64,000 bases of DNA. Origin: Stieleria neptunia (GTDB lineage Bacteria; Planctomycetota; Planctomycetia; Pirellulales; Pirellulaceae). Positions 15,278 to 27,651 of the stretch are shown here, piece by piece. The stretch is taken from the NCBI RefSeq assembly GCF_007754155.1, contig NZ_CP037423.1, forward strand, positions 7,002,938 to 7,066,937, read 5' to 3'. Both the position numbers and the translations under genes were made by a program. Within the stretch, counting starts at the first letter, position 1. Each line of letters begins with the position of its first letter. The notes beneath the pieces are model-generated. The model was not told the DNA's origin. It was given only the letters and a program-made list of their open reading frames with translations, and did no database searches.

Positions 15278-15294
15278 TGGACAGAAACTGTCCA
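15278..15294. promoter_or_regulatory. Candidate regulator-binding palindrome upstream of pump operon
   Basis: TGGACAGAAACTGTCCA is a 7-bp perfect inverted repeat around AAA. The same site with one change (TGGATAG...) lies upstream of the kinase/regulator operon at 25189-25205. Its centre is about 105 bp upstream of the -24 element at 15391, a normal enhancer distance for an NtrC-type activator. Binding by the response regulator at 22121-23545 is inferred. Confidence 0.65.
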
Positions 15295-15388
15295 CCCCCG
15301 TGGCGAATCTCTGTGCTTTGCACGGCCGTGGCCTTTCGAATCCGGCCAAAACGGCCCCAAAACCTCGTCCTCGTGCTTCTATCGCACT

Positions 15389-15405
15389 CTGGCACGGTGC
15401 GTGCT
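15389..15405 (+). promoter_or_regulatory. Sigma54 (-24/-12) promoter for metal-efflux operon
   Basis: CTGGCACGGTGCGTGCT matches the sigma54 consensus YTGGCACG(R)NNNTTGCW at all but one position (GTGC for TTGC). GG (15391-15392) and GC (15403-15404) are separated by exactly 10 bp as required. The predicted transcription start is near 15416, about 40 bp before the adaptor ATG at 15456. Upstream, 14962-15277 has no gene; it contains small inverted motifs such as GTCCC-GT-GGGAC near 15153. Confidence 0.65.
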
Positions 15406-15455
15406 TCTGGATTCCGGCACGCCCCGAATCCCTTCCCTCCCGAGTGCTCCCCGCG

Positions 15456-16946
15456 ATGACCGATCCAACGAGCCCCGCCGCCAAGCCGAATTTCTTGCAG
15501 ACACTTTCGCAGGGTCTTCCAACACTGCTGGTGTTGGTCGTCATGGCCGGCGGCTGGCTGGCGATCCACAAAATCAACAACCCCGCGGCGATCGAAACAC
15601 AGACCGAGGACGCCCAGCAGCCCGCCGATCCGAATACCGTGATCCTGCCCGAGGGCAAGCTGGCGGTCGCGCGGATCCAAACCGTTCCGGCCCAGCGTCA
15701 ATGGGTTCAACATGTTCACACCGTTCCGGGCAGACTGCGCTACGACCAAACCAGACACGTCGACGTGAAAGCCCCGATGGATGGGATTTTGTCTGAAATC
15801 TTGGTGACCCCCGGCGACGCCGTGGCCAGCGGTCAGCTGATCGCCGTTTTGCGCAGTCCCGAAATCGGACAGGCACGTGCCGAAATCTTGAAACGCCAAA
15901 AGGAGCGTGAGATCGCGGGGCAGGTGCTGGCACGGGAAACGACACTTTCCAAAAACCTGCAGCTGCTCTCGGAGATGCTCGATCGGGGGGAATCTGTCGA
16001 GGTGATCGAAGCCGCGTTCGCCGACGAGGCCTTGGGCAGCTACCGGCAAGAGATTTTGTCGAGCTACTCGAAAATGAAGTTGGCCGACACGTTGATCGCC
16101 AAGATTCAACCCTTGGTCGAATCGGGATCGGTTTCAGGACGGACGGCGCGGCAGCGCGAGGGCGAGCGGCAACTGGCCGAAACGGCGTTCCGAACCGCCC
16201 GCGACCAGGCGACGTTCGCCGCCGAACAAGCAAAACTGAAAGCCGAAGCCGAGTTATCTCAGGCCGACCGTCAACTGAATCTGGCATGGCAGTCGCTCGA
16301 AACCTTGCTCGGATACAAGGAAGACAAACGAACCGCAAATCTGAGCAACGAAGAAGCGTTGTCGCGACTGGAAGTCCGCGCCCCCTTTGACGGGACCGTC
16401 GAATCGCGGATGTTCGCCGACAACGAACGCGTCTCACGTGGCGACTCCCTGATCGTGCTGGCCAACACCGATTCGTTGTACGTCGAAGCGAGTCTTCGCG
16501 AAAGCGATTGGTCCGCGGTGTCGCTGCAACCCGGAACGGAGATCTCGGTCCGCGTTCCGGCGTTGGAGAACCAGACCTTCGGCGCAAACATTCACTACGT
16601 CGGTCGCGAAGTTCAATCCGACACCAACTCCGTCCCGTTGGTCGCAAGAATCGACAATCGCGACGGCCTGTTGCGGCCGGGCATGTTTGTCCGCGTGACG
16701 ATTCCCATCGGCCAAGGCCGCCAAGCGTTGTCGGTCAAACCCGAATCGGTGATCCAACACGACAACCAGCAATTCGTCTTCGTCGACCTCGATGGCGGTT
16801 CCTATCGACGCGTCGACGTGACCACCGGCGACGTCTCGGACGACTGGGTGGAAATCACGGCAGGATTGTCGCCGCAACAAAGGGTCGTGACCGAAGGGGC
16901 GTTCCTGCTGAAGTCCGAACTGTTGCTGCAAGGCGAAGGCGAGTGA
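15456..16946 (+). CDS. RND efflux adaptor (membrane fusion protein), CzcB-like
   Basis: ATG 15456 is chosen (496 residues) because the upstream frame is low-quality and contains the proposed promoter. A short cytoplasmic end is followed by one membrane anchor (LPTLLVLVVMAGGWLAI). Then come a biotinyl-lipoyl half (TRHVDVKAPMDGILSEILVTPGDAVASGQLIAVL), a long alpha-hairpin (about 145-290), the second lipoyl half (LEVRAPFDGTVESRMFADNERVSRGDSLIVLANTDSLYVEASL), a beta-barrel and a membrane-proximal domain (PESVIQHDNQQFVFVDL, VEITAGLSPQQRVVTEGAFLLKSEL). This is the usual layout of HlyD/CusB/CzcB adaptors linking an RND pump to an outer-membrane channel. The pump gene follows after 136 bp. Confidence 0.88.
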   Translation: MTDPTSPAAKPNFLQTLSQGLPTLLVLVVMAGGWLAIHKINNPAAIETQTEDAQQPADPNTVILPEGKLAVARIQTVPAQRQWVQHVHTVPGRLRYDQTRHVDVKAPMDGILSEILVTPGDAVASGQLIAVLRSPEIGQARAEILKRQKEREIAGQVLARETTLSKNLQLLSEMLDRGESVEVIEAAFADEALGSYRQEILSSYSKMKLADTLIAKIQPLVESGSVSGRTARQREGERQLAETAFRTARDQATFAAEQAKLKAEAELSQADRQLNLAWQSLETLLGYKEDKRTANLSNEEALSRLEVRAPFDGTVESRMFADNERVSRGDSLIVLANTDSLYVEASLRESDWSAVSLQPGTEISVRVPALENQTFGANIHYVGREVQSDTNSVPLVARIDNRDGLLRPGMFVRVTIPIGQGRQALSVKPESVIQHDNQQFVFVDLDGGSYRRVDVTTGDVSDDWVEITAGLSPQQRVVTEGAFLLKSELLLQGEGE

Positions 16947-16952
16947 CCGCCC

Positions 16953-17040
16953 GTGGGATAGGCTTCCAGCCTGTCATCCCGACGTGGGATAGGCTTCCAG
17001 CCTGTCAGCTCTGAATCGACAGGCTAGAAGCCTATCCCAC
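16953..17040. repeat. Three copies of the GTGGGATAGGCTTCC repeat
   Basis: Direct copies at 16953-16975 and 16984-17006 and an inverted copy at 17018-17040 lie between the adaptor and pump genes. The second and third can pair as a 23-bp hairpin (one mismatch) inside the operon transcript, which could stabilise upstream mRNA or reduce read-through into the pump gene. Confidence 0.8.
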
Positions 17041-17082
17041 TGATCCTACCTCAACTCGCGCAGCAACTCCGACTCTGACACC

Positions 17083-20000
17083 ATGCTCACTCGCATCATT
17101 GAACTCTCACTGACCAACCGTGGTCTGGTCATCATTTTGACCTTGTTGATGGCCGCCGCGGGAATGTATTCGGCGTTGCACCTGCCGATCGACGCCGTGC
17201 CCGACATGACGAACGTGCAAGTGCAAGTCGTCACCGACGCCGGTTCACTCTCGCCGGTCGAAGTCGAACGCTACGTCACGTACCCGGTCGAGAACACGAT
17301 GGGGGGGCTGCCGGACGTGGAGGAACTCCGCAGCGTTTCCAAGTTCGGCATCTCCGTCGTCACGATTGTGTTCACCGAAGGCACCGATATCTATCGTGCA
17401 CGCCAACTGGTGACCGAACGTCTGGGGGATGCCGCGGCCAGCATTCCTCCCGGTTACGGATCCCCCACCGTCGGGCCGTTGACGACCGCACTGGGAGAAA
17501 TCCTGCAGTTCGAAGTCCGCAGCGAACGGCACACTCCCATGGAATTGCGCACGCTGTTGGAATGGGATGTCGCACCGCGGTTGCGCGAAGTCAGCGGCGT
17601 GACGGAAATCAACACCCACGGCGGCTACTACAAAACGTTCGAGGTGCAACCCGATCCCGACCGCATGACCAGCTATGGCATTTCGATGGAACTGCTGTTC
17701 GAGCGTCTGCAAAACAATAACAACACCTCCGGCGGTGGCTACGTGATCCACCACGGTGAACAGCGTTTCATCCGCGGCGTGTCGTTGTTGGAAACCGCTG
17801 GAGACATCGAAGAGGTGGTGGTGCGGCGCGAAAGCGACGGCAATCCGATTCTGATTCGCGACATCGCCAGCGTCAGCATCCAACCGATGACACGTCAAGG
17901 TGCGGTCACACGCGACGGTCGGGGCGAAGTCGTGACGGGATTGGTGATGATGCTGATCGGTGAAAACTCCCGCGAGGTGGTCCATGCGGCGAAACAGCGT
18001 CTGAAAGAGATCGAGGTCACGCTGCCCGACGGGGTGAGGTTGGAAGTGACCTATGACCGGGCCGCGCTGATCGGCCGAACGCTGAAAACGGTACTGACCA
18101 ATCTGACCGAAGGCGGCATGCTGGTGATCGTCGTGCTGTTGCTGATGCTGGGTAATCTGCGCGCCGGCATCATCGTCGCCTTGGCGATCCCATTGTCTAT
18201 GTTATTTGCCACGAACGTGATGGCCTACACCGGCGTCACCGCCAGCCTGATGAGTCTGGGGGCGATCGATTTCGGATTGATCGTCGACAGCAGTGTCATC
18301 ATGGTCGAGAACTGCATCCGCAAGCTGTCTCATGACAACGGTGACACCAAACACGAAGACGTGATCCGCGACGCGGCGGTCGAAGTCCGAAAGCCGACCA
18401 TGTTCGGCGAATTAATCATCGCCGTCGTGTTCTTGCCGATCTTGCTGCTGGAAGGGACCGAAGGCAAGCTGTTTCGGCCGATGGCGTTGACGGTGCTGTT
18501 CGCGCTGGGCGGCTCATTGGTTCTGTCCCTGTCGTTTATGCCCGCGATGGCCTCCATCTTTCTTCCCAAAAAGATGAAGGAGAAAGAGGTCTTTCTGGTG
18601 CGGGTGGTGAAGTTCTTTTACACACCGCTGGTCACCCGCGCGATCAAGCACCCGATCGTGACGATCGCTTCGGCGCTCACTATCTTTGCGGTCAGTTTGC
18701 CGATGGCACGCAATTTGGGGGCGGAGTTCATGCCGCGGTTGGAAGAGGGCGACTTGTTGGTCGAAGCCTTGCGGTTGCCCAGTGCGACGCTGGAGGGATC
18801 GATCGAAATGTCGACCCAGATCGAAAACATCCTGAAAAAGTACCCCGAAGTCGAAACCGTGTTTTCCAAAACCGGGCGACCGGAGATCGCCAATGACGTG
18901 ATGGGCGTGCACCAAACGGACGTCTGGGTGCTGCTTAAACCCGTCGCCAGTTGGCCTGAGCCGAAGACGCGTGACGAGTTGATCGAACAGATGTCCGACG
19001 AGCTGAACGCAAACGTTCCCGGTGTGGCCTTCGGATTCACCCAACCGATCGAAATGCGGGTCGACGAATTGGTCGCCGGCGTCAAGGCCGATGTCGCCGT
19101 GTTGCTGTACGGGGACGACATGGAAGAACTGGGAATCAAGGGCAAAGAGATCGAGTCGGTGTTGCGGTCGATTCCCGGAGCGGTGGACGTCAAAGCGGAT
19201 TACCAAGCCAACCTGTCGACGCTGACCATCAAAACCAAACCCCAAGCGCTCGCACAATACGGCATCGATGCGCAAACCGTTCTCGACGTCGTCTCGTCGC
19301 TCGGTGGGCACCAAGTCGGTCAGATCTTTGAAGGCCGCGCCCGGTATCCGATCATGGTCCGTGTCCCGGTCGAGTGGCGGGAGAATCTCGAACTGCTCGA
19401 ACAGGTCCCCGTGGCGAATGCGGCCGGCAAATCAATCCCGCTGAAGGAACTTGCGGACATTCGGTTGGAAGAAACACCGCCGACGATCGAACACGAAGGC
19501 CAACGGCGGCGGACCTTCATTTCCGCCAATGTGCGTGGGCGTGATGTCGCGACGTTCGTCAACGAGGCTCAAACCACGGTGGAAGAGAAGGTTGAATTCG
19601 CCCCCGGCTACGAGATCCGCTGGGGCGGTGACTTTGAAAACCTGCAATCGGCCAGTCGTCGACTCGCCATCATTTTGCCGATCGTGTTGATCATCATCAT
19701 GTTGCTGTTGCACACCAGCCTGGGATCCCTGCGATTGGCGCTGCTGATCTTCTTGGCCGTCCCGATGGCGGCATCCGGCGGCGTGATCGCGCTGTACCTG
19801 CGGTCGATGCCCTTCAGTATCTCCGCCGGCGTCGGTTTTATCGCACTGTTTGGCGTCGCGGTCCTGAACGGGTTGGTTTGGGTCAGTGCCGCGGAAAATC
19901 TGCGTCACACCGGGATTCCACTGCGAGAGGTCAGTGCGGAAACGGCCCAGGTGCGTCTGCGGCCGGTGCTGATGACCGCCTTGGTGGCGAGTCTGGGGTT

Positions 20001-20193
20001 CTTGCCGATGGCACTGTCCACGAGCGACGGCGCGGAGATGCAGCGTCCGTTGGCGACGGTCGTGATCGGGGGCTTGATCACGTCGACCCTGTTGACCTCG
20101 TTGGTGGTGCCCTGCATCTATCCCTGGTTCGCACGTGGATTGCAGAACATCAAACTGACGCATCATGGCGAACCGGAACCGACGCTGCACTGA
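17083..20193 (+). CDS. czcA: Heavy-metal efflux RND pump, CzcA family
   Basis: 1036 residues, the family length, with a short N-terminal helix, two large periplasmic regions and twelve predicted membrane helices. The heavy-metal RND proton-relay motif D396-F-G-L-I-V-D402-S-S-V-I-M-V-E409-N is intact in helix 4. The porter segment [28 protein letters not shown] resembles CzcA (Co/Zn/Cd) rather than CusA, and the clear CusA methionine triad is not evident, so a divalent-metal substrate is favoured over Cu+/Ag+. The pump drives proton-coupled export from periplasm or cytoplasm through adaptor and TolC-like partners. The adaptor is directly upstream; the outer-membrane partner is at 25.8-27.4 kb on the other strand. 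Confidence 0.9.
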   Translation: [1036 protein letters not shown]

Positions 20194-20212
20194 CGGATCG
20201 GCTGGAAAGCCA

Positions 20213-20329
20213 GTGGGATAGGCTTCCAGCCTGTCATCCCCAGTGGGATAGGCTTCCAGCCTGTCGTTCCCAGTGGGATAGGCTTCCAGCCTGTCATTCA
20301 GCATCGAAGAGCCTGGAAGCCTCTCCCAC
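20213..20329. repeat. Four GTGGGATAGGCTTCC-type repeats after the pump gene
   Basis: Direct copies start at 20213, 20243 and 20273 with a spacing of 30 bp; a diverged inverted copy ends at 20329. The IS copy 2 begins only a few bases later, and the inverted copy lay four bases from the response-regulator stop before the IS inserted. Confidence 0.8.
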
Positions 20330-20334
20330 GTCAG

Positions 20335-22117
20335 GGGTTCTTCGCGGATTTTAGTGGCTGCTTTCGAATACTCGGGGAAGGTTTTTTGAGGGATGACTGC
20401 GATGTCCGATGGTTCTGTTCGGTAGGATGGCGAAGCCAGGTGAAGCGGAGGCGGGCTCTGCTCTCAAGGAACTTCCTACCCAGCTAGTTCATTGGGGACC
20501 ACTCTCAGGTTGAGTGCAGCTGCCCGTTTCGCCAGGTTTTCCATTGCTCGCTTCTTGTATTGCTGTTCGTAATAGTCGTTGCCGACATCGACATATTCCC
20601 TCCCGTACTTCAGCATCCCATAAACTATTTTCGCGAGCTTGTGGGCCGTCGCCGTGATCGCTTTGGGTGAACCAAGACGGGAACGGATCCTGCGAAAGAA
20701 CGCTCCTAAGGCGCAGTTTGATCGTGCCAGGGACGCGGCGGCTGTTCGAAGTGCGGCGGCGGCTCGGTTCGCACTTGTACGTGTTTTACCACTGAGCAAT
20801 TTCCCACCTGTCTTCTTACTGCCCGGACATAGGCAAAGCCAAGAAGTGAAATGCTTCTCTGTTGCCCACCTACTCATGTCGGTACCGATTTCAGAAATCA
20901 GTGTGATTGCGGATTGACCGCTAATCCCATCAATGGTCGTCATGTCGACGCCCAGCACCCGGTAGAGCTGATTGCGCATATCGAACCGGGGGCTATTGCT
21001 TCCAGCTTTAGGAGCCTTCAGCTTCGGCAGAATCTCACCGTCACTTCGGTCGGAAAATGTACCCAAATGTTCTTCAAGCTTGGAATCGACTTCCGACAGT
21101 TTGGAACCGTAAAAACGGTACAGTTCCAGAGCCTGCTTTAACGCAAATACATGTTCTTCACGCCAATTGCCTTCCAGAGCTTTCGCGATCGTCGACTCGT
21201 CATTTTTGCACCTTGGATCGCGAAGTTTTGCGAGTAGGTGAGGGTCTCGACTGCCCGCAACAATGGCATCCAAAATGGCAAGGCCAGTGGTGCCGGTGAT
21301 GTCCGAAATGACGTGATGGAGCTGGACATTCATTTCCATCATCGCCTTCTGCATCCGTTGGATATGCTCGCTCGCGTTGGCGACGAGCATGGCTCGTTGC
21401 CGCATGTAAGAACGCAGAACACAAATTGCCGAACTCTTCCAACCAATCTGCGAGCGACGCCAGATCGGATGTAAAGGTGCCGAAGCAGCGAACGTGTGAT
21501 GAGTCGCGATCGGAGGGCACGGCAACATAGTGCTGGGTCGAACCAATATCGATGCCGGCAGCGTTCAAGTTGATTGTGTCAAGTGATTGTGGAACGGGTG
21601 CGTTGTCAATCGGAAACCCACCACGTGATCGACGCTTAGGTTTCCCAGAGGATTTCTTCTTGGCCATGGCGGAACTCCGAAAGGTGACTTCAACGGAAAA
21701 ACGCGGCAGGCGCGGGAGTAGGGCTCTGTTATTCTCTCAAACGGGGTCAACGCCGTGAGGCGAGCCACCAATGTCATTTTCAAGCAAACTCCCGGGACCA
21801 GGCTGAGAAGCGGGCACGAAGCACCACGTAGAGAACGGCCTCCACGACCCGCCGCGTATCCGACATGATAATCCTCACACCCAGTTCCTCGGAATCATTT
21901 GGTCACTTGTGGCCTGCGGCGGCTGAGGAGCAACCCGCCAAGGAACAACCTGGTCTGCGATGCTCCGAAGGTGCTTCGTGCCCTCCGCCGGCCCCCGTGT
22001 CGGCGGAGGGTCGTTTGAACCGAGCGTTTGTCCTCGCTCTCCCCATTCGGACATCGCAGCAATGCCTCGAAAAACCTGGGTCCTAAGCGATTAGCCACTA
22101 AAATCCACGAAGAACCC
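20335..22117 (-). mobile_element. IS110-family element, copy 2 (1783 bp, defective) with 7-bp flanking repeat
   Basis: Ends are GGGTTCTTCGCGGATTTTAG (left) and the complement of GGGTTCTTCGTGGATTTTAG (right), about 25 of 26 bases matched. ACGTCAG occurs immediately outside both ends (20328-20334 and 22118-22124). The right copy of this 7-mer contains the TGA of the response-regulator gene, so insertion was between that stop codon and a palindromic repeat. The internal sequence differs from copy 1 (7466-9248) by only scattered bases. Confidence 0.88.
20476..21667 (-). pseudogene. IS110-family transposase, same internal deletion as copy 1
   Basis: The predicted fragments are identical to those at 7607-8798: N-terminal piece from 21667 up to LADWLEEFG, then a frameshift and resumption at ICVLRSYMRQRAM to the stop at 20476. 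The same central part of the DEDD domain is missing at the same junction. The lesion therefore predates the duplication of the element; movement of this copy would have needed transposase supplied by an intact relative. Confidence 0.88.
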
Positions 22118-22120
22118 ACG

Positions 22121-23545
22121 TCAGGAGAATTGTTTGATGTCGATGCCCAGCGATTTGATCTTGCTGCGCAGCGTCACGCGGGAGATGCCCAGGATCGTCG
22201 CGGCCTTCAGTTGGTTGCCCGTGGTGTGGTCCAGCACTTGCGTGATCAGTTGCCGTTCGGCGATCGCGATCGCTTCGGCGTACAGGTTGTCACTCCCCGC
22301 TTCTAAACGTTCGGCGACAAACTGCTCGGACAGAAAACTCGACTTGTCGGACTGCGAGTCCGCGTGCGGGCTAACGGCGCTGAGCGGCGGCAGGAAGTCG
22401 GGCAGCAAGATGTTGCCCCGTGCCGTCAACAGCGACTGTTTCATGACGCTTTCGAGTTCTCGAACATTGCCGGGCCAGTGATATTGATCCAGGATTTCAA
22501 GCGTCTCGGGGGCGATCGTGCGAATGTCTTTGCCGAATTCGTTGCTGTAGCGGCGCAGAAAATACTCGGCCAATACCTTTAAGTCGTCTTCACGCTCGCG
22601 CAACGGGGGCAGATGGATGGTCACCACGCTGAGCCGGAAATAAAGGTCCGAGCGAAACAGGCCTTCGGTGACCAGCTTTTTGAGATCATGGTTCGTCGCC
22701 GCGATGATCCGCGCGTCGACTTTGATCGGTGTGTTGCCGCCGACACGTTCGAACGTCTGGTCTTGCAGCACACGCAACAGTTTGGCTTGCGTCATCGGCG
22801 ACATGTCACCGACTTCGTCTAAGAACAAGGTGCCGCGGTCGGCCTGTTCCAGTTTACCGATCCGCTGGCGATGGGCGTCGGTGAACGCTCCTTTCTCGTG
22901 GCCAAAGATCTCGCTTTCCAACAGCGCGTCGGGAATCGCCGCGCAATTGATGGCTTGGAACGGTCCGCTGGATCGGGCGCTGTGGTGATAGATCGCTTGG
23001 GCGACGACTTCTTTCCCGGTTCCACTTTCGCCCAACAGCAGGACGGTCAAGTTTTGCGATGCGACACGCCCGATCGCCTTGTAAACTTCTTTCATCGCGT
23101 GACAACGACCGACGATCGCGTCGGCAACCGATTCATCCATCGGGGCGTCTTCGTCGGCCAACACCGGTTGGACCCGCACCATGCGGCTGAGGTTAAACGC
23201 CTTTTCCAATAGCGCACGCATCTCATCGAGCTCCAACGGCTTGAACAGATAGTCGTACGCTCCCAACTTGGTCGCTTCGATCGCGGATTCGACGGTGCCG
23301 TGACCGGTGATAAAGATGAAGGGGATGCGGGGGTCGATCTCGCGCAGCCGCTTGAACAATTCCAATCCGTTGGTGTCGGGAAGGCTGAGGTCCAAGACCA
23401 CGACGTCGGGTTTGGCCTGGACGAACAGCGCTTCCCCGTCGGCTCCGTTTTTTGCGGTCATGACCGAGGTCGTTTCGGTCGTGAAGGCGCGCTCAAACGC
23501 CTTCAAAATGGAGGCTTCGTCATCGATGACTAACAGGCTTTGCAT
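22121..23545 (-). CDS. Sigma54-activating response regulator (NtrC family)
   Basis: 474 residues. The receiver domain (1-120) has the acidic pair D8/D9, phosphoacceptor D52 (VVVLDLSLPD), T/S at FITGHG and K in YLFKPLEL. The AAA+ sigma54-interaction domain (about 145-385) has Walker A GESGTGKE, the sigma54-contact loop written GAFTDA instead of the commoner GAFTGA, Walker B GTLFLDEVGD and the arginine region FRSDLYFRLSVV. The C-terminal Fis-type helix-turn-helix is NQLKAATILGISRVTLRSKIKSLGI. The start overlaps the kinase stop by 16 bp, so the two are translationally coupled. It most likely activates the two sigma54-type promoters in this locus. The stop codon touches IS copy 2. Confidence 0.93.
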   Translation of the reverse strand: MQSLLVIDDEASILKAFERAFTTETTSVMTAKNGADGEALFVQAKPDVVVLDLSLPDTNGLELFKRLREIDPRIPFIFITGHGTVESAIEATKLGAYDYLFKPLELDEMRALLEKAFNLSRMVRVQPVLADEDAPMDESVADAIVGRCHAMKEVYKAIGRVASQNLTVLLLGESGTGKEVVAQAIYHHSARSSGPFQAINCAAIPDALLESEIFGHEKGAFTDAHRQRIGKLEQADRGTLFLDEVGDMSPMTQAKLLRVLQDQTFERVGGNTPIKVDARIIAATNHDLKKLVTEGLFRSDLYFRLSVVTIHLPPLREREDDLKVLAEYFLRRYSNEFGKDIRTIAPETLEILDQYHWPGNVRELESVMKQSLLTARGNILLPDFLPPLSAVSPHADSQSDKSSFLSEQFVAERLEAGSDNLYAEAIAIAERQLITQVLDHTTGNQLKAATILGISRVTLRSKIKSLGIDIKQFS

Positions 23546-25014
23546 GATTTCTCGCTCGTCGGCGCGTCGCCGGAACCGCTGTCCGCTGCGCCGGGATCTC
23601 GGTCGGATGCGCCGCCGGTTGGATTGGCGATCGGCAGCGTCAGTCGAAACTGTGCCCCCCGCGGGATTCGGTTGGAACCGACCAAGCTGCCGTGATGTGT
23701 TTGGGCGATCCGGCGACAGATGCCCAGCCCCAGACCGACGCCATTGGGTTTGCTGGTCGCAAAGGGCGTAAAGAGTTTGTCCAAGATCGTCTCGCTGATT
23801 CCTTCCCCGCTGTCCACAACGGTGACCTGGACCTGTGAATCATCCAACGTGACCGCGATCGACAACTCTCCTCCATCGGGCATCGCATCGAGAGAATTGA
23901 GTGTCAGGTTCAAGAGCAATTGTTGAATCTGTGCGACGTCGCCGTCGATGGCGATCGGGGCATCGGGGCAATCCAGAGTCAGGCTGACGTTTTGCGTGCC
24001 GCAGCGTCCTTCGATCAATTGAACCGTGCGGCCGATGGCGTCTTGAATCGGAAACGTCTTCGATTCACCTTGTTCGGGGCGGGCATAGTCGAGCAGACTG
24101 TTGACCGAGCGTTCCATCCGCCGAATCTCTTGCTCGACCAATTCCAAATCGTCGGTCGGCAACCCCTCGTCGGCGAACTTGCTGCGATTGACTTGGATCA
24201 ACATTTTGATCGACGTCAGCGGATTGCGGATTTCGTGTGCGACGCCCGTAGCCAGTTGAGCAAGCGTGGCCATCTGTTGTGCACGCAACGCTTCGGTTTC
24301 CCGCGCCATCAGCAATCGTTCCCGTTCGGCCCGCTCAAACTCGGTCAAATCACGAATGATCGCGATTCTTAGTTGCCCGGTTTCGGAGGGGTATTCGCTG
24401 ACGGAGACCTGGACCGGAAACGACGTTCCGTCCTGCCGATCGACGTTGATCCGAAACTCACAGGGAAGCGTCTGGAACGAGTCGGGGAAGTCCGGCATCC
24501 GCGATTGCGTCGTGTTTCCGACCCAATCTGCGGCGTCGACGCCCAACAGTTCCGAACTGGCGCGATTGCATGACGCGACCCGCCCCTGACGATCAAACGT
24601 GATGATCCCCTCGCTGGCGTTGGCCACGATCGTTTCAGAACGTTGATGCTCCTGGATCGCGATTCGCCGCAAGGGGCCGATGATGACCCACCACAACACG
24701 GGCGCGCAAACCATCGTCAGCAACACCGCATCGAGCACCGCCGTCCCCGATTCGCCGAGAAACTCGGGCATCACGTGGGGCAATAGAAACATCACGCCGA
24801 CTTCGGCGGTGAAGACCAGCATCAAAACGATCCCCAGAATTCGCGTCGGTGAACGCAGGATCGATGACAAGGCGGACACGCGGTTGGACATGCGAAACCA
24901 CTGACGAAGGCTGGGAATTCGAGGCACCCGCGTGACAGGACGCCAGCCACCCTCCGGCTCGCGTGCCTGAATCGGGCAGGTGGAGAGTTCCCATTCTATC
25001 AGTGATTTCGGCAT
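23530..25014 (-). CDS. Membrane sensor histidine kinase with PAS domain
   Basis: 494 residues from ATG 25014; ATG 24891 (453 residues, MSNRVSALSS...) is an equally credible start just before the first membrane helix. Two hydrophobic helices (about 58-80 and 93-113) enclose only a short loop, so sensing is probably in the membrane or by the PAS domain (about 125-225, ETIVANASEGIITFDRQGRV). The HisKA box has H260 in GVAHEIRNPLTSIK; the ATPase domain has an N-box (LLNLTLNSLDAMPDGG), G1 VVDSGEGI and G2 GVGLGLGICRRI. It would autophosphorylate and pass phosphate to the co-transcribed NtrC-type regulator. A sigma54-like promoter lies 44 bp or so upstream of ATG 25014. Confidence 0.9.
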   Translation of the reverse strand: MPKSLIEWELSTCPIQAREPEGGWRPVTRVPRIPSLRQWFRMSNRVSALSSILRSPTRILGIVLMLVFTAEVGVMFLLPHVMPEFLGESGTAVLDAVLLTMVCAPVLWWVIIGPLRRIAIQEHQRSETIVANASEGIITFDRQGRVASCNRASSELLGVDAADWVGNTTQSRMPDFPDSFQTLPCEFRINVDRQDGTSFPVQVSVSEYPSETGQLRIAIIRDLTEFERAERERLLMARETEALRAQQMATLAQLATGVAHEIRNPLTSIKMLIQVNRSKFADEGLPTDDLELVEQEIRRMERSVNSLLDYARPEQGESKTFPIQDAIGRTVQLIEGRCGTQNVSLTLDCPDAPIAIDGDVAQIQQLLLNLTLNSLDAMPDGGELSIAVTLDDSQVQVTVVDSGEGISETILDKLFTPFATSKPNGVGLGLGICRRIAQTHHGSLVGSNRIPRGAQFRLTLPIANPTGGASDRDPGAADSGSGDAPTSEKSCKAC

Positions 25015-25068
25015 CGAACATCTCTGGCACTCGCGGTGATCACCATCCCATCGACCTCTCGACGGGTT

Positions 25069-25085
25069 TGCAACCGATGTGCCAA
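25069..25085 (-). promoter_or_regulatory. Sigma54 (-24/-12) promoter for kinase/regulator operon
   Basis: Read on the minus strand this is TTGGCACATCGGTTGCA: TGGCAC and TTGC are both perfect, and GG (25083-25082) to GC (25071-25070) spacing is exactly 10 bp. The predicted start is near 25058, followed by the kinase ATG at 25014. The palindrome at 25189-25205 is about 114 bp upstream, reproducing the geometry at the pump promoter with about one helical turn of difference. Confidence 0.68.
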
Positions 25086-25188
25086 ACCGCTCCCCCGCGA
25101 CTCCCTCGGTACAACACCCGCGATTCCCGCCAATGCCCGCCGTTTCTCACCGGAATTTCAATCCGATGACGTCGCTGGCCGGTCTCCA

Positions 25189-25205
25189 TGGATAGAAACT
25201 GTCCA
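25189..25205. promoter_or_regulatory. Candidate regulator-binding palindrome upstream of kinase operon
   Basis: TGGATAGAAACTGTCCA differs from the site at 15278-15294 by one base and shares its AAA centre; flanking A and T extend it to a 19-base near-palindrome. The shared site in front of both operons suggests that the regulator controls the pump and its own synthesis. Confidence 0.65.
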
Positions 25206-25377
25206 TCGTGTGATCAACTCTTGCCTTCCACGCGATCTTTCAATTCAACATGCCGACGCGGAGACGGGTAGAACGATGGAGGTAAGGCATGGTCGAGCGG
25301 GGAAGGGGACAAGGAGACAAGGAGACAAGGAGAGGGGGAGAGCGAGCGATCGGAGCAAGACCTGCGAAGCCCCAGCT

Positions 25378-25766
25378 GCCACTCCATTATTCTGCCACTC
25401 CATTATTCTGCCACTCCATTATTCTGCCACTCCATTATTCTGCCACTCCATTATTCTGCCACTCCATTATTCTGCCACTCCATCATTCTGCCACTCCATC
25501 ATTCTGCCACTCCATCATTCTGCCACTCCATCATTCTGCCACTCCACTCCATCATTCTGCCACTCCATCATTCTGCCACTCCATCATTCTGCCACTCCAT
25601 CATTCTGCCACTCCATCATTCTGCCACTCCATCATTCTGCCACTCCATCATTCTGCCACTCCATCATTCTGCCACTCCATCATTCTGCCACTCCATCATT
25701 CTGCCACTCCATCATTCTGCCACTCCATCATTCTGCCACTCCATCATTCTGCCACTCCATCGTTTT
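25378..25766. repeat. 16-bp tandem array (24 units)
   Basis: Units of GCCACTCCATTATTCT (six, 25378-25473) are followed by GCCACTCCATCATTCT (from 25474), a single 21-bp unit at 25538-25558 carrying a 5-bp CACTC duplication, twelve more regular units, and a final variant ending TCGTTTT at 25751-25766. There are no spacers, so it is not a CRISPR array. A shorter imperfect GACAAGGAGA repeat lies just upstream near 25308-25332. All three frames are open through the array in places, but the translations are pure repeat. Confidence 0.92.
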
Positions 25767-25806
25767 GCCCCCATCGTTTTGCCTTTCGACTCCGCCCCCA
25801 TCTGCG

Positions 25807-27408
25807 TCACTGTCCGCCGAAGGATGCGCCTCGGATTCCGTCGCCGTCGGTATAGTCGGCCGGTGCGTCCAACCCGCCGGTCAACAACAGCCCTTCGACT
25901 TGGGCGTCGGCCTGTGCCAGTCGGCCTTGGGCGGTAATCAATCGGATCGCCGATTCGAAATAGCTGCGGCGAACGACCAAGACTTGCAAGAACTCCAGTT
26001 CGCCGGCGCGGTAGGCTTCTTCACTCAGGTCCAAGCTCTTTTGCGTCTGGGGGATGATCTCTTGTTCGTACTTCGTGACCGCTGCCAATGATGAATCAAA
26101 GGCTTGCGCGGTGCGTGCCAGGCGAGACTTGATCGCTTGTTCGATACGTTTGACATCTTCGAGGGCCCGCGTGTAGTCGGCGTAGGCTGCGGAGATGTTG
26201 CCCGCGTTTTTGTTCCAGACGGGAAGGGGCGCGTCGAATTGCAGATTGATCATTCCCGAGTCGGTGGCGTTGTCATAGCCGGCACCGAATTGAGCGGTCA
26301 GGTTGGGGATCATCTGAACGCGTTGTCGTTTCAGCAGCGCGTACTTTTCACACACCAGCGCGTTGGCGGCGGACAGTTCGGGACTCTCGGCCAGAATCTG
26401 GCTGTAGGCGGCTTCCCAATCGCGTGAGGATTGCGGTGTCGCCGGAACGTCGACCAGTCGCGCGGGGGCGGTTTCGCCCAGTCCGGCGACGGCGGCCAGA
26501 TCCTGCCACGCCCCCCGATACTCGATTTCCGCCTGTTCGGCGGCGAGCATGATTTCACTGAGCAGGGTCTGGGCCTGCAAGACTTCGATCAGATTGCCTT
26601 CTTCGGCCTCCTGACGCTCCGTCGCGACCTGAACGCCGCGCCGGGCAACGGTTTCAAAACTGCGAGTCGCGTCGGCTCGTCGCTGCGCCGCAACCGCCTC
26701 GAAAAAGCGGACGCGAACATCCGTCAAGACGCGATGCCGTTGGGTCTGCATCTCCCAACGTTGGGCCGACATCGTGTGCCCCAAGACTTCTCGATTGAGT
26801 TCCAACTTGTTGCCACGAACGAACTCCTGTTCCACAAACACGCCGTGCTGGTCGGTATTCTCATCGGCGAGCTGTTGCCCGAAATAGCCCAGTGTCGGGT
26901 TCGGGCGCGTCCCCACTTGGCTCCGCAAACCGGCAGCCTTGCTGGCCGTCGCGCCGGCGGCGATGATCGCGGGGTTATTGCCGAGCGCGAGCTGTTCGAG
27001 TTGTTCGAGCGAGTAGACGGGTTCGCCAACCGTTTGCGGCCCGTCGGTCGTGACCAGATCGCTGAACGATTCCAATCGCGATTCAGCCGCCTGGATATCG
27101 ACCGGCTGCAATGCGATTCGTTCCAATTGATCGGCAAAACTGATCGCGTCCTCGTCGCCATCTTCCGCGTAGGCGACCGTGTCGACCCTACCGGCCGATT
27201 CACTCGCGGACGTGGAGCGTCCACGCGTTGTCTCGCCGGACTCGATACCGGTGAACCCAGCGCGCTCCGGCGGGGTCACAGACGATGGATTAGTTGACGA
27301 AATTGCTGGCGGGTCGGGACGCGAACCGACTTGTGCGCAACCGACCAGGGACAACAAGCAACAGGCCGATAGCGACATCTTGCGACGTCTGATGGCATCC
27401 GTGCACAC
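25807..27408 (-). CDS. TolC/CzcC-like outer-membrane efflux lipoprotein
   Basis: GTG 27408 is chosen (533 residues) because GGAG lies seven bases upstream and because it gives a proper lipoprotein signal, with positive residues RRRK before MSLSACCLLSLVGC; the ATG at 27378 would lack the charges. The lipobox cysteine is in LVGCAQ. After a Ser/Glu-rich linker (to about 130) come two outer-membrane-efflux-protein repeats with long helices, for example LEQLALGNNPAIIAAGATASKAAGL and YSQILAESPELSAANALVCEKYALLKRQRVQMIPNLTAQFGAGYD. It is the natural channel partner of the adaptor and RND pump at 15.4-20.2 kb, although encoded on the opposite strand beyond the two-component genes. Confidence 0.88.
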   Translation of the reverse strand: MCTDAIRRRKMSLSACCLLSLVGCAQVGSRPDPPAISSTNPSSVTPPERAGFTGIESGETTRGRSTSASESAGRVDTVAYAEDGDEDAISFADQLERIALQPVDIQAAESRLESFSDLVTTDGPQTVGEPVYSLEQLEQLALGNNPAIIAAGATASKAAGLRSQVGTRPNPTLGYFGQQLADENTDQHGVFVEQEFVRGNKLELNREVLGHTMSAQRWEMQTQRHRVLTDVRVRFFEAVAAQRRADATRSFETVARRGVQVATERQEAEEGNLIEVLQAQTLLSEIMLAAEQAEIEYRGAWQDLAAVAGLGETAPARLVDVPATPQSSRDWEAAYSQILAESPELSAANALVCEKYALLKRQRVQMIPNLTAQFGAGYDNATDSGMINLQFDAPLPVWNKNAGNISAAYADYTRALEDVKRIEQAIKSRLARTAQAFDSSLAAVTKYEQEIIPQTQKSLDLSEEAYRAGELEFLQVLVVRRSYFESAIRLITAQGRLAQADAQVEGLLLTGGLDAPADYTDGDGIRGASFGGQ

Positions 27409-27651
27409 CGCGAGACTCCAAAATGAGAAACGATCAACAGGCCTCCCTGCCAAGCTGATCCACAGCACATCCGATCGACGTGCAATACGGTTTTCCTATC
27501 GGAACGATTGTCGCGATGCTTTGCCTTGTACCGGACCTGAGCCTCGAAAGCACGGCACGCCTACCGGCGAATCACTGCAACCGGTATAGATTGACATGGT
27601 GTGATAAACTTTCGCCGGAACAGTGATCTAACGCAGAAGAGAATGCGATCG

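What the first reader, a model, noticed from the sequence alone, without database searches (positions are those of the whole stretch)
15278..25205. Shared enhancer palindrome and sigma54 promoters define a self-contained metal-response regulon
TGGACAGAAACTGTCCA (15278-15294) and TGGATAGAAACTGTCCA (25189-25205) differ by one base in 17. Each lies about 105-114 bp upstream of a -24/-12 sequence with exact 10-bp GG-GC spacing (15389-15405 plus strand; 25069-25085 minus strand), one before the adaptor/pump operon and one before the kinase/regulator operon. The regulator encoded here is of the sigma54-activating class. The distance between palindrome and promoter differs by about one DNA turn. This predicts autoregulated, metal-responsive control. 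Most characterised heavy-metal RND systems use CusRS/CzcRS-type (OmpR-like) regulators or MerR proteins; an NtrC-type regulator is less usual (ZraR is a known case).
Basis: partly seen in the sequence, partly recalled or inferred. Interest (0 to 1): 0.82.

Follow-up and report, generated by a model that had tools for sequence, protein, structure and literature searches.

The report
Sigma54 enhancer-controlled metal-type efflux pump regulon
Two matching DNA palindromes mark where one two-component regulator probably switches on both a metal-type efflux pump and its own genes, and in some related bacteria a very similar pump and the same kind of membrane sensor sit beside a completely different regulator, so evolution appears to have swapped the control machinery.

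Summary
The 17-mers at 15278-15294 and 25189-25205 are the only genome copies with at most one mismatch, each with a -24/-12 box downstream (112 and 121 bp, start to start). A composite dyad-plus-box pattern gave 31 sites in 241 family genomes and no control matches; 19 precede the pump adaptor, 9 the kinase, 3 other genes. All 25 complete adaptor upstream regions read in regulator-positive genomes carry the dyad; 0 of 19 read beside homologous pumps in regulator-negative genomes do. The regulator therefore very probably uses this enhancer at the pump. Autoregulation is likely here but lineage-specific (14 strong, 2 weak of 26). "Metal-responsive" is unproven: the kinase has no obvious metal-binding loop. 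New: six regulator-negative relatives with a 79-81% identical pump carry a divergent NarL/LuxR-type system whose kinase has the same two-helix membrane module, and their pump promoters share a different element. Sensor and pump stay together while the output machinery differs. Verdict: a new variant of a known kind (ZraSR-like sigma54 control), with an interesting chassis swap.

The parts
15278..15294 (.). strong enhancer dyad TGGACAG-AAA-CTGTCCA of the pump operon
   Evidence: dyad present in 25 of 25 complete adaptor upstream regions read in regulator-positive genomes
15301..15317 (+). second, weak dyad-like element 23 bp downstream of the first (TGGCGAATCTCTGTGCT)
   Evidence: conservation at +22..+40 in the 25 pump sites (mean 0.71 bits against 0.20 in both flanks); not seen in the 14 kinase sites (0.29)
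15390..15405 (+). -24/-12 (sigma54-type) promoter box of the pump operon
15456..16946 (+). periplasmic adaptor (RND_mfp, CusB/CzcB-like)
17083..20193 (+). CusA/CzcA-family RND pump
   Evidence: TIGR00914 1140.5 bits, cut-off 701.45; best PDB relative ZneA
22121..23545 (-). NtrC-type response regulator (receiver, AAA+ with GAFTDA loop, Fis HTH)
23530..24891 (-). PAS-HisKA-HATPase sensor kinase; alternative start at 25014
24649..24888 (-). two-helix membrane module of the kinase (80 residues after the start Met)
25069..25084 (-). -24/-12 (sigma54-type) promoter box of the kinase/regulator operon
25189..25205 (.). enhancer dyad of the kinase/regulator operon (sense: TGGACAG-TTT-CTATCCA)
25807..27468 (-). 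outer-membrane factor (OEP family), probable third pump component; no dyad found in the 600 bp upstream in this genome

Best explanation
The response regulator at 22121-23545, phosphorylated by the kinase at 23530-24891, binds the dyad TGGAMAG-N3-CTKTCCA and, by DNA looping, activates sigma54-RNA polymerase at the -24/-12 box about 110-120 bp downstream. It drives the adaptor/RND pump operon, through a strong plus a weak dyad, and in this genome its own operon through a single dyad. The kinase probably senses through its two-helix membrane module, most likely something linked to the pump's substrate. Shown by sequence: the anatomy, genome-wide specificity, and the co-occurrence of regulator and site. 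Inferred: binding, sigma54 dependence, looping, the signal and its metal nature.
For: Only two genome copies at 0-1 mismatch. Composite pattern: 31 distinct sites in 241 genomes, 0 control matches; 19 precede the adaptor, 9 the kinase, 3 other genes. Sites in 21 of 29 genomes with the regulator orthologue (71% identity or more; the next matches are 58% or less) against 2 of 212 without (Fisher 1.2e-21, not corrected for phylogeny). Not preselected for the site: 25 of 25 complete adaptor upstream regions in regulator-positive genomes have the dyad (23 at 14/14, one 13, one 12) with a -24/-12 box 88-136 bp from dyad start; 0 of 19 readable regions beside pump homologues in regulator-negative genomes do (18, G200). 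In G003 the pump lies about 200 kb from the kinase/regulator yet keeps dyad and box. The genome has one match to the sigma54 family PF04552.
Against: No binding or expression data. Two regulator-negative genomes (G009, G200) have composite sites near other genes, so related regulators may share the motif. Kinase sites are missing in 10 of 26. Eight of 29 regulator-positive genomes have no exact composite site, some by mismatches, some without a close pump. G247, an 83%-complete genome without a detected regulator, has a 91% identical pump whose upstream is off the contig, so it could not be tested. The AAA+ loop reads GAFTDA rather than GAFTGA; this is a listed natural variant (PMC4641369 passage), but G266D in NorR is constitutive (PMC2941729 passages).
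Confidence: 0.87

Rival explanations
1. Same wiring, but the signal is membrane or envelope stress (as in Psp or Zra systems) or an organic substrate, not metal; the CusA/CzcA-family label misleads about the inducer.
For: The stretch between the kinase's two helices is short and variable with no conserved metal ligand; H38 is in 40% of 121 sequences. [quoted passage not shown] G010, with no close pump orthologue (best 52%), has its only composite site before a kelch/Ig-like protein.
Against: Pump and sensor module stay together in 6 of 6 relatives whose output system differs, which fits sensing of pump substrate. The pump is well over the CusA/CzcA family cut-off.
Confidence: 0.3
2. The dyad is the operator of a different regulator (for example another NtrC paralogue) and the local regulator is a bystander.
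For: 27 relatives of the regulator were scored in the own genome; G009 and G200 have sites in stretches that also hold NtrC paralogues 47-51% identical.
Against: Presence of the dyad at the pump follows this orthologue: 25 of 25 against 0 of 19; the operon of the same regulator carries it in most genomes examined.
Confidence: 0.06
3. Chance palindromes or a dispersed repeat near chance -24/-12 matches.
For: -24/-12-like words alone are common in this genome, and the dyad alone with a free spacer and one mismatch is little above control in 15 relatives (40 against 30).
Against: Two genome copies only, 31 composite sites against 0 controls, cross-genus conservation of the dyad (1.60 bits per base against 0.20 in flanks).
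Confidence: 0.01

Closest known systems
ZraSR (HydHG) of E. coli and Salmonella
   Same: Kinase plus NtrC-type regulator; the regulator acts on sigma54 promoters of a stress target and of its own operon (PMC4987338 passages).
   Different: Target here is an RND pump, not the ZraP chaperone; the kinase has a two-helix module with a short loop; NCBIfam scores are far below the ZraR and ZraS cut-offs (346.3 against 760; 167.4 against 479).
CzcRS / CusRS control of CzcCBA / CusCBA
   Same: A two-component system that controls a heavy-metal-type RND pump; CzcRS induces CzcCBA in Pseudomonas aeruginosa (PMC3362554 abstract, search listing).
NarL/LuxR-type pump system of related Pirellulaceae (L247-L252)
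   Same: Pump 79-81% identical; kinase carries the same membrane module.
   Different: HisKA_3 kinase and GerE regulator in 6 of 6, a different conserved promoter element, no dyad, and best -24/-12-like scores of 5-9 of 11 anywhere in 500 bp against 9-11 at the dyad-linked boxes.
ZneA / CusA RND pumps
   Same: Best solved relatives by sequence.
   Different: None of three CusA methionines (M573, M623, M672) is kept: E, T, E (read from the alignment). Helix-IV motif is DFG-DSS-VEN, not the DFG-DGA-VEN given for HME1/HME2 (PMC3637150 passages).

Membership tests
sigma54-activating response regulator (NtrC class) | receiver + AAA+ sigma54-interaction domain + Fis-type HTH | tested here: met
   Pfam PF00072, PF00158, PF02954
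sigma54-activating response regulator (NtrC class) | GAFTGA loop | tested here: inconclusive
   reads GAFTDA; listed among variants that would keep activity in PMC4641369 (passage)
sigma54-activating response regulator (NtrC class) | activation of a sigma54 promoter | not testable with these tools
   conserved -24/-12 box only
ZraSR | ZraR/ZraS equivalog score over curated cut-off | tested here: not met
   346.3 against 760; 167.4 against 479
ZraSR | ZraP target | not tested
   no search for ZraP was made; the targets found are the pump and the kinase operon
CusA/CzcA heavy-metal RND (TIGR00914) | score over curated cut-off | tested here: met
   1140.5 against 701.45 bits
HME1/HME2 subgroup | DFG-X3-DGA-X3-VEN in helix IV | tested here: not met
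   DFGLIVDSSVIMVEN (motif from PMC3637150 passages)
Cu(I)/Ag(I) CusA type | three-methionine site M573/M623/M672 | tested here: not met
   E, T, E at the aligned positions (the three positions are named in PMC3637150)

The most novel reading that the evidence does not exclude
A two-helix membrane module (E29, M33, P37, D53, T58, P63 and W66, numbered from the residue after the start Met; 98-100% conserved in about 120 homologues and kept in all six NarL-type kinases) is a dedicated sensor for the substrate or state of this pump. It has been kept with the pump across two unrelated output machineries: PAS-HisKA/NtrC/sigma54 with the TGGAMAG dyad, and HisKA_3/LuxR-type with an unrelated promoter element. 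Sensor and effector would be the conserved unit; regulator class, promoter type and operator would be exchangeable.
Probability: 0.4. Interest if true: 0.75.

Novelty: new variant of a known kind. Interest (0 to 1): 0.58.

Why it matters
It gives a regulator, its likely operator and its target in a phylum where, to my knowledge, few regulons are mapped, with a clean natural control (similar pumps with and without the regulator). If the shared module is the sensor, the two sister systems offer a direct way to find what is sensed and to study how a pump changes between enhancer-dependent and other promoters without losing its sensor.

Tried and rejected
Wider regulon in this genome: the composite patterns, including a looser one over 14 genus genomes (12 places, all among the 31), returned only the two sites for the own genome. 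Two-mismatch palindromes elsewhere (L003, L004) were read and dismissed. Outer-membrane factor as a third target: no dyad within 600 bp upstream in four of five genomes examined, this one included; G007 has one. Helical phasing: R 0.65 in the pattern-selected set (n=28) fell to 0.44 in the larger set (n=41, p 0.0004) and 0.40 after collapsing by genus and gene (n=24, p 0.024); a period near 11.3 fits better than 10.5. I treat it as suggestive only. Cys61 as a pump-specific metal ligand: 99% in the homologues, but I in the pump-linked kinase of G141 and other residues in the NarL-type kinases, so not required. Copper/silver specificity: rejected on the methionine test.
Full report
What is there. 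The window lies in a single 10,975,817-bp contig. The named proteins closest to its kinase module are from Rhodopirellula sp. SM50 and Stieleria magnilauensis, so I take this to be a Stieleria-type planctomycete. Two operons converge: adaptor (15456-16946) and RND pump (17083-20193) on plus; kinase (23530-24891), then regulator (22121-23545) on minus, with an outer-membrane factor (25807-27468) further upstream on minus. The regulator has receiver, AAA+ sigma54-interaction and Fis-type domains; the kinase has PAS, HisKA and HATPase domains. The pump passes the CusA/CzcA subfamily cut-off.

The observation. In the window there are 4 matches within 3 mismatches against 0.21 expected. In the genome only these two match with 0-1 mismatch. 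The -24/-12 boxes are TGGCACGGTGCGTGCT and TGGCACATCGGTTGCA, 112 and 121 bp from the dyad starts. Each element alone is weak evidence: -24/-12-like words are below control at 2 mismatches, and the dyad with a free spacer and one mismatch is 40 against 30 control forward matches in 15 relatives.

Genome-wide and family-wide test. A composite pattern (dyad, 70-130 bases, GGCAC-N6-TGC) was run on 241 family genomes. It gave 23 and 9 listed places in the two gap ranges, 31 distinct, against 0 reversed-pattern controls. Of these 31, 19 lie before an adaptor orthologue, 9 before a kinase orthologue, and 3 elsewhere. Regulator orthologues (71% identity or more, next matches 58% or less) occur in 29 of 241 genomes. 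Sites occur in 21 of these 29 and in 2 of the other 212 (Fisher p 1.2e-21; relatedness is not corrected for). A looser pattern in the 14 genus genomes gave 12 places, all among the 31, two of them in this genome, and 0 controls.

Test not preselected on the site. I took the adaptor upstream regions (500 bp) that could be read in regulator-positive genomes. Of the 29 genomes, 24 gave 25 complete regions (G215 has two pumps). G013 is cut by its contig edge, with a partial dyad visible. G008, G010, G118 and G154 gave no close, complete pump locus. All 25 regions have the dyad: 23 at 14 of 14 scored positions, G019 at 13, G083 at 12, each with a -24/-12 box 88-136 bp below that scores 9-11 of 11. 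The scoring allows three bases at two positions, and the shuffles used there move blocks of two bases (p 0.005, the floor, for all but G083, 0.015). Of 26 evaluable kinase upstream regions, 14 score 13-14, two score 12, and 10 score 9-11, no better than shuffles (p 0.10 or more) (G227 and G154 too short, G141 not placed at its start). So the pump site is constant where it could be read, and the kinase site varies.

Natural negative controls. Close pump homologues exist in genomes without the regulator. I fetched 20 such loci and G200, 21 of 43 listed at 64% identity or more. In the 18 of 20 with readable upstream, and in G200, the best dyad score was 9-10 of 14, the chance level. For the more distant adaptors (32-38% identical) the start was extrapolated from the alignment. 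The contrast holds at equal pump identity: G032, G083, G141 and G137 (77-81%, regulator present) have the dyad; G031, G088, G089, G091, G092 and G094 (79-81%, regulator absent) do not. One locus could not be tested: G247, an 83%-complete genome with a 91% identical pump at a contig end. In G003 pump and regulator are about 200 kb apart and the pump still carries dyad and box.

Anatomy of the enhancer. Pump enhancers have a second, weaker element 22-23 bp below the first (mean information 0.71 bits at +22..+40 against 0.20 in both flanks); kinase enhancers do not (0.29). In the window it is 15301-15317. This resembles the paired sites of other NtrC-class enhancers (recalled). Dyad-to-box distances cluster at 88-93, 100-103, 111-116, 121-123 and 132-138, but with exceptions (67, 68, 108, 159); the phasing statistic is only weakly significant after collapsing relatives.

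A similar pump and the same sensor module with another output system. In all six regulator-negative loci with a 79-81% identical pump (L247-L252), a divergent gene pair sits next to the adaptor: a HisKA_3 kinase and a receiver-GerE (LuxR/NarL-type) regulator, in 6 of 6 by Pfam. A profile of the first 80 kinase residues from our clade finds the kinase of all six (E 9e-13 to 5e-17) and nothing in the other 15 loci of that set without the regulator orthologue (two of these are short contigs). E29, M33, P37, D53, T58, P63 and W66, counted from the residue after the start Met, are 98-100% conserved in our clade and, read from the alignments, kept in all six. Hydropathy places two helices around a short loop. 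The six adaptor/kinase intergenic regions share a different element, roughly GTCAGGRAANCCC..ACA ... TTYTCCYGAATTG, and no dyad. A pump tree puts the six together (100/99) inside a 31-row clade with 25 NtrC-linked pumps (100/100); whether NtrC or NarL control came first is unresolved, since G032, the six and the other 24 form an open fork. The module is not exclusive to pump loci: two kinases beside more distant NtrC-type regulators (L071, L075) have a recognisable version, and no pump homologue showed in the short stretches held for these (9.3 and 3.9 kb).

How it probably works. The kinase module senses, the kinase phosphorylates the regulator, the regulator binds the dyads, and DNA looping brings its AAA+ ring to sigma54 polymerase. 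The genome has one PF04552 match. Sequence shows the parts and their co-occurrence. The signal is the weakest link. The pump lacks the CusA methionine site, which argues against Cu(I)/Ag(I); its helix-IV motif DFG-DSS-VEN does not match the HME1/HME2 motif (PMC3637150 passages). A divalent cation is my guess, no more.

Known or new. Sigma54 control of ZraR-type genes in Planctomycetota has been predicted in bulk (PMC12316311 passages), and ZraSR is an autoregulated sigma54 two-component system (PMC4987338 passages). In the open-licence library searched I saw no paper that describes this dyad, an NtrC-type regulator of a CusA/CzcA-family pump in planctomycetes, or the two-output arrangement (searches, of which I saw the listings and the passages cited here; most subscription papers are not in that library). 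A paper on planctomycete genomes that include Stieleria mentions heavy-metal efflux annotations and, in the passages seen, nothing on their regulation (PMC11588811). I therefore rate this a new variant of a known kind.

Noticed in passing
L247-L252 (six relatives), intergenic between adaptor and NarL-type kinase: A shared element unrelated to the dyad (roughly GTCAGGRAANCCC..ACA ... TTYTCCYGAATTG ... AAT) that may be the LuxR-type operator and its promoter.
   Followed up: partly
22121-23545: The regulator's sigma54-contact loop reads GAFTDA; the same change made NorR constitutive (PMC2941729 passages), yet it is a listed natural variant (PMC4641369).
   Followed up: partly
L098:5481-5620: In G010, which keeps kinase and regulator but has no close pump orthologue, dyads and a -24/-12 box precede a 997-aa kelch/Ig-like protein.
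   Followed up: partly
L143:7602 and L153:9822: TGGAAAG-N3-CTTTCCA sites with -24/-12 boxes near ATP-grasp, Alpha-E and universal-stress genes, in stretches that also hold a different NtrC paralogue; perhaps a sister regulon.
   Followed up: partly
25376-25769: Tandem array of a 16-bp unit, 24.3 copies, between the outer-membrane factor gene and the kinase enhancer.
   Followed up: no
20476-21667: IS110-type transposase in two overlapping frames, apparently frameshifted, between the pump and the regulator; only the downstream part has a Pfam match.
   Followed up: no
20210-20322: Short 30-bp direct repeats (CCAGTGGGATAGGCTTCCAGCCTGTCATCC) just after the pump gene.
   Followed up: no
L145 and L147, upstream of the kinase: Differently spaced or extra dyads (159 and 67 bp from the box) in two relatives, so kinase-promoter architecture varies.
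   Followed up: no
G247:C329 (L260): A 91% identical pump in an 83%-complete genome with no regulator detected; its upstream is off the contig, so it is an untested possible exception.
   Followed up: no
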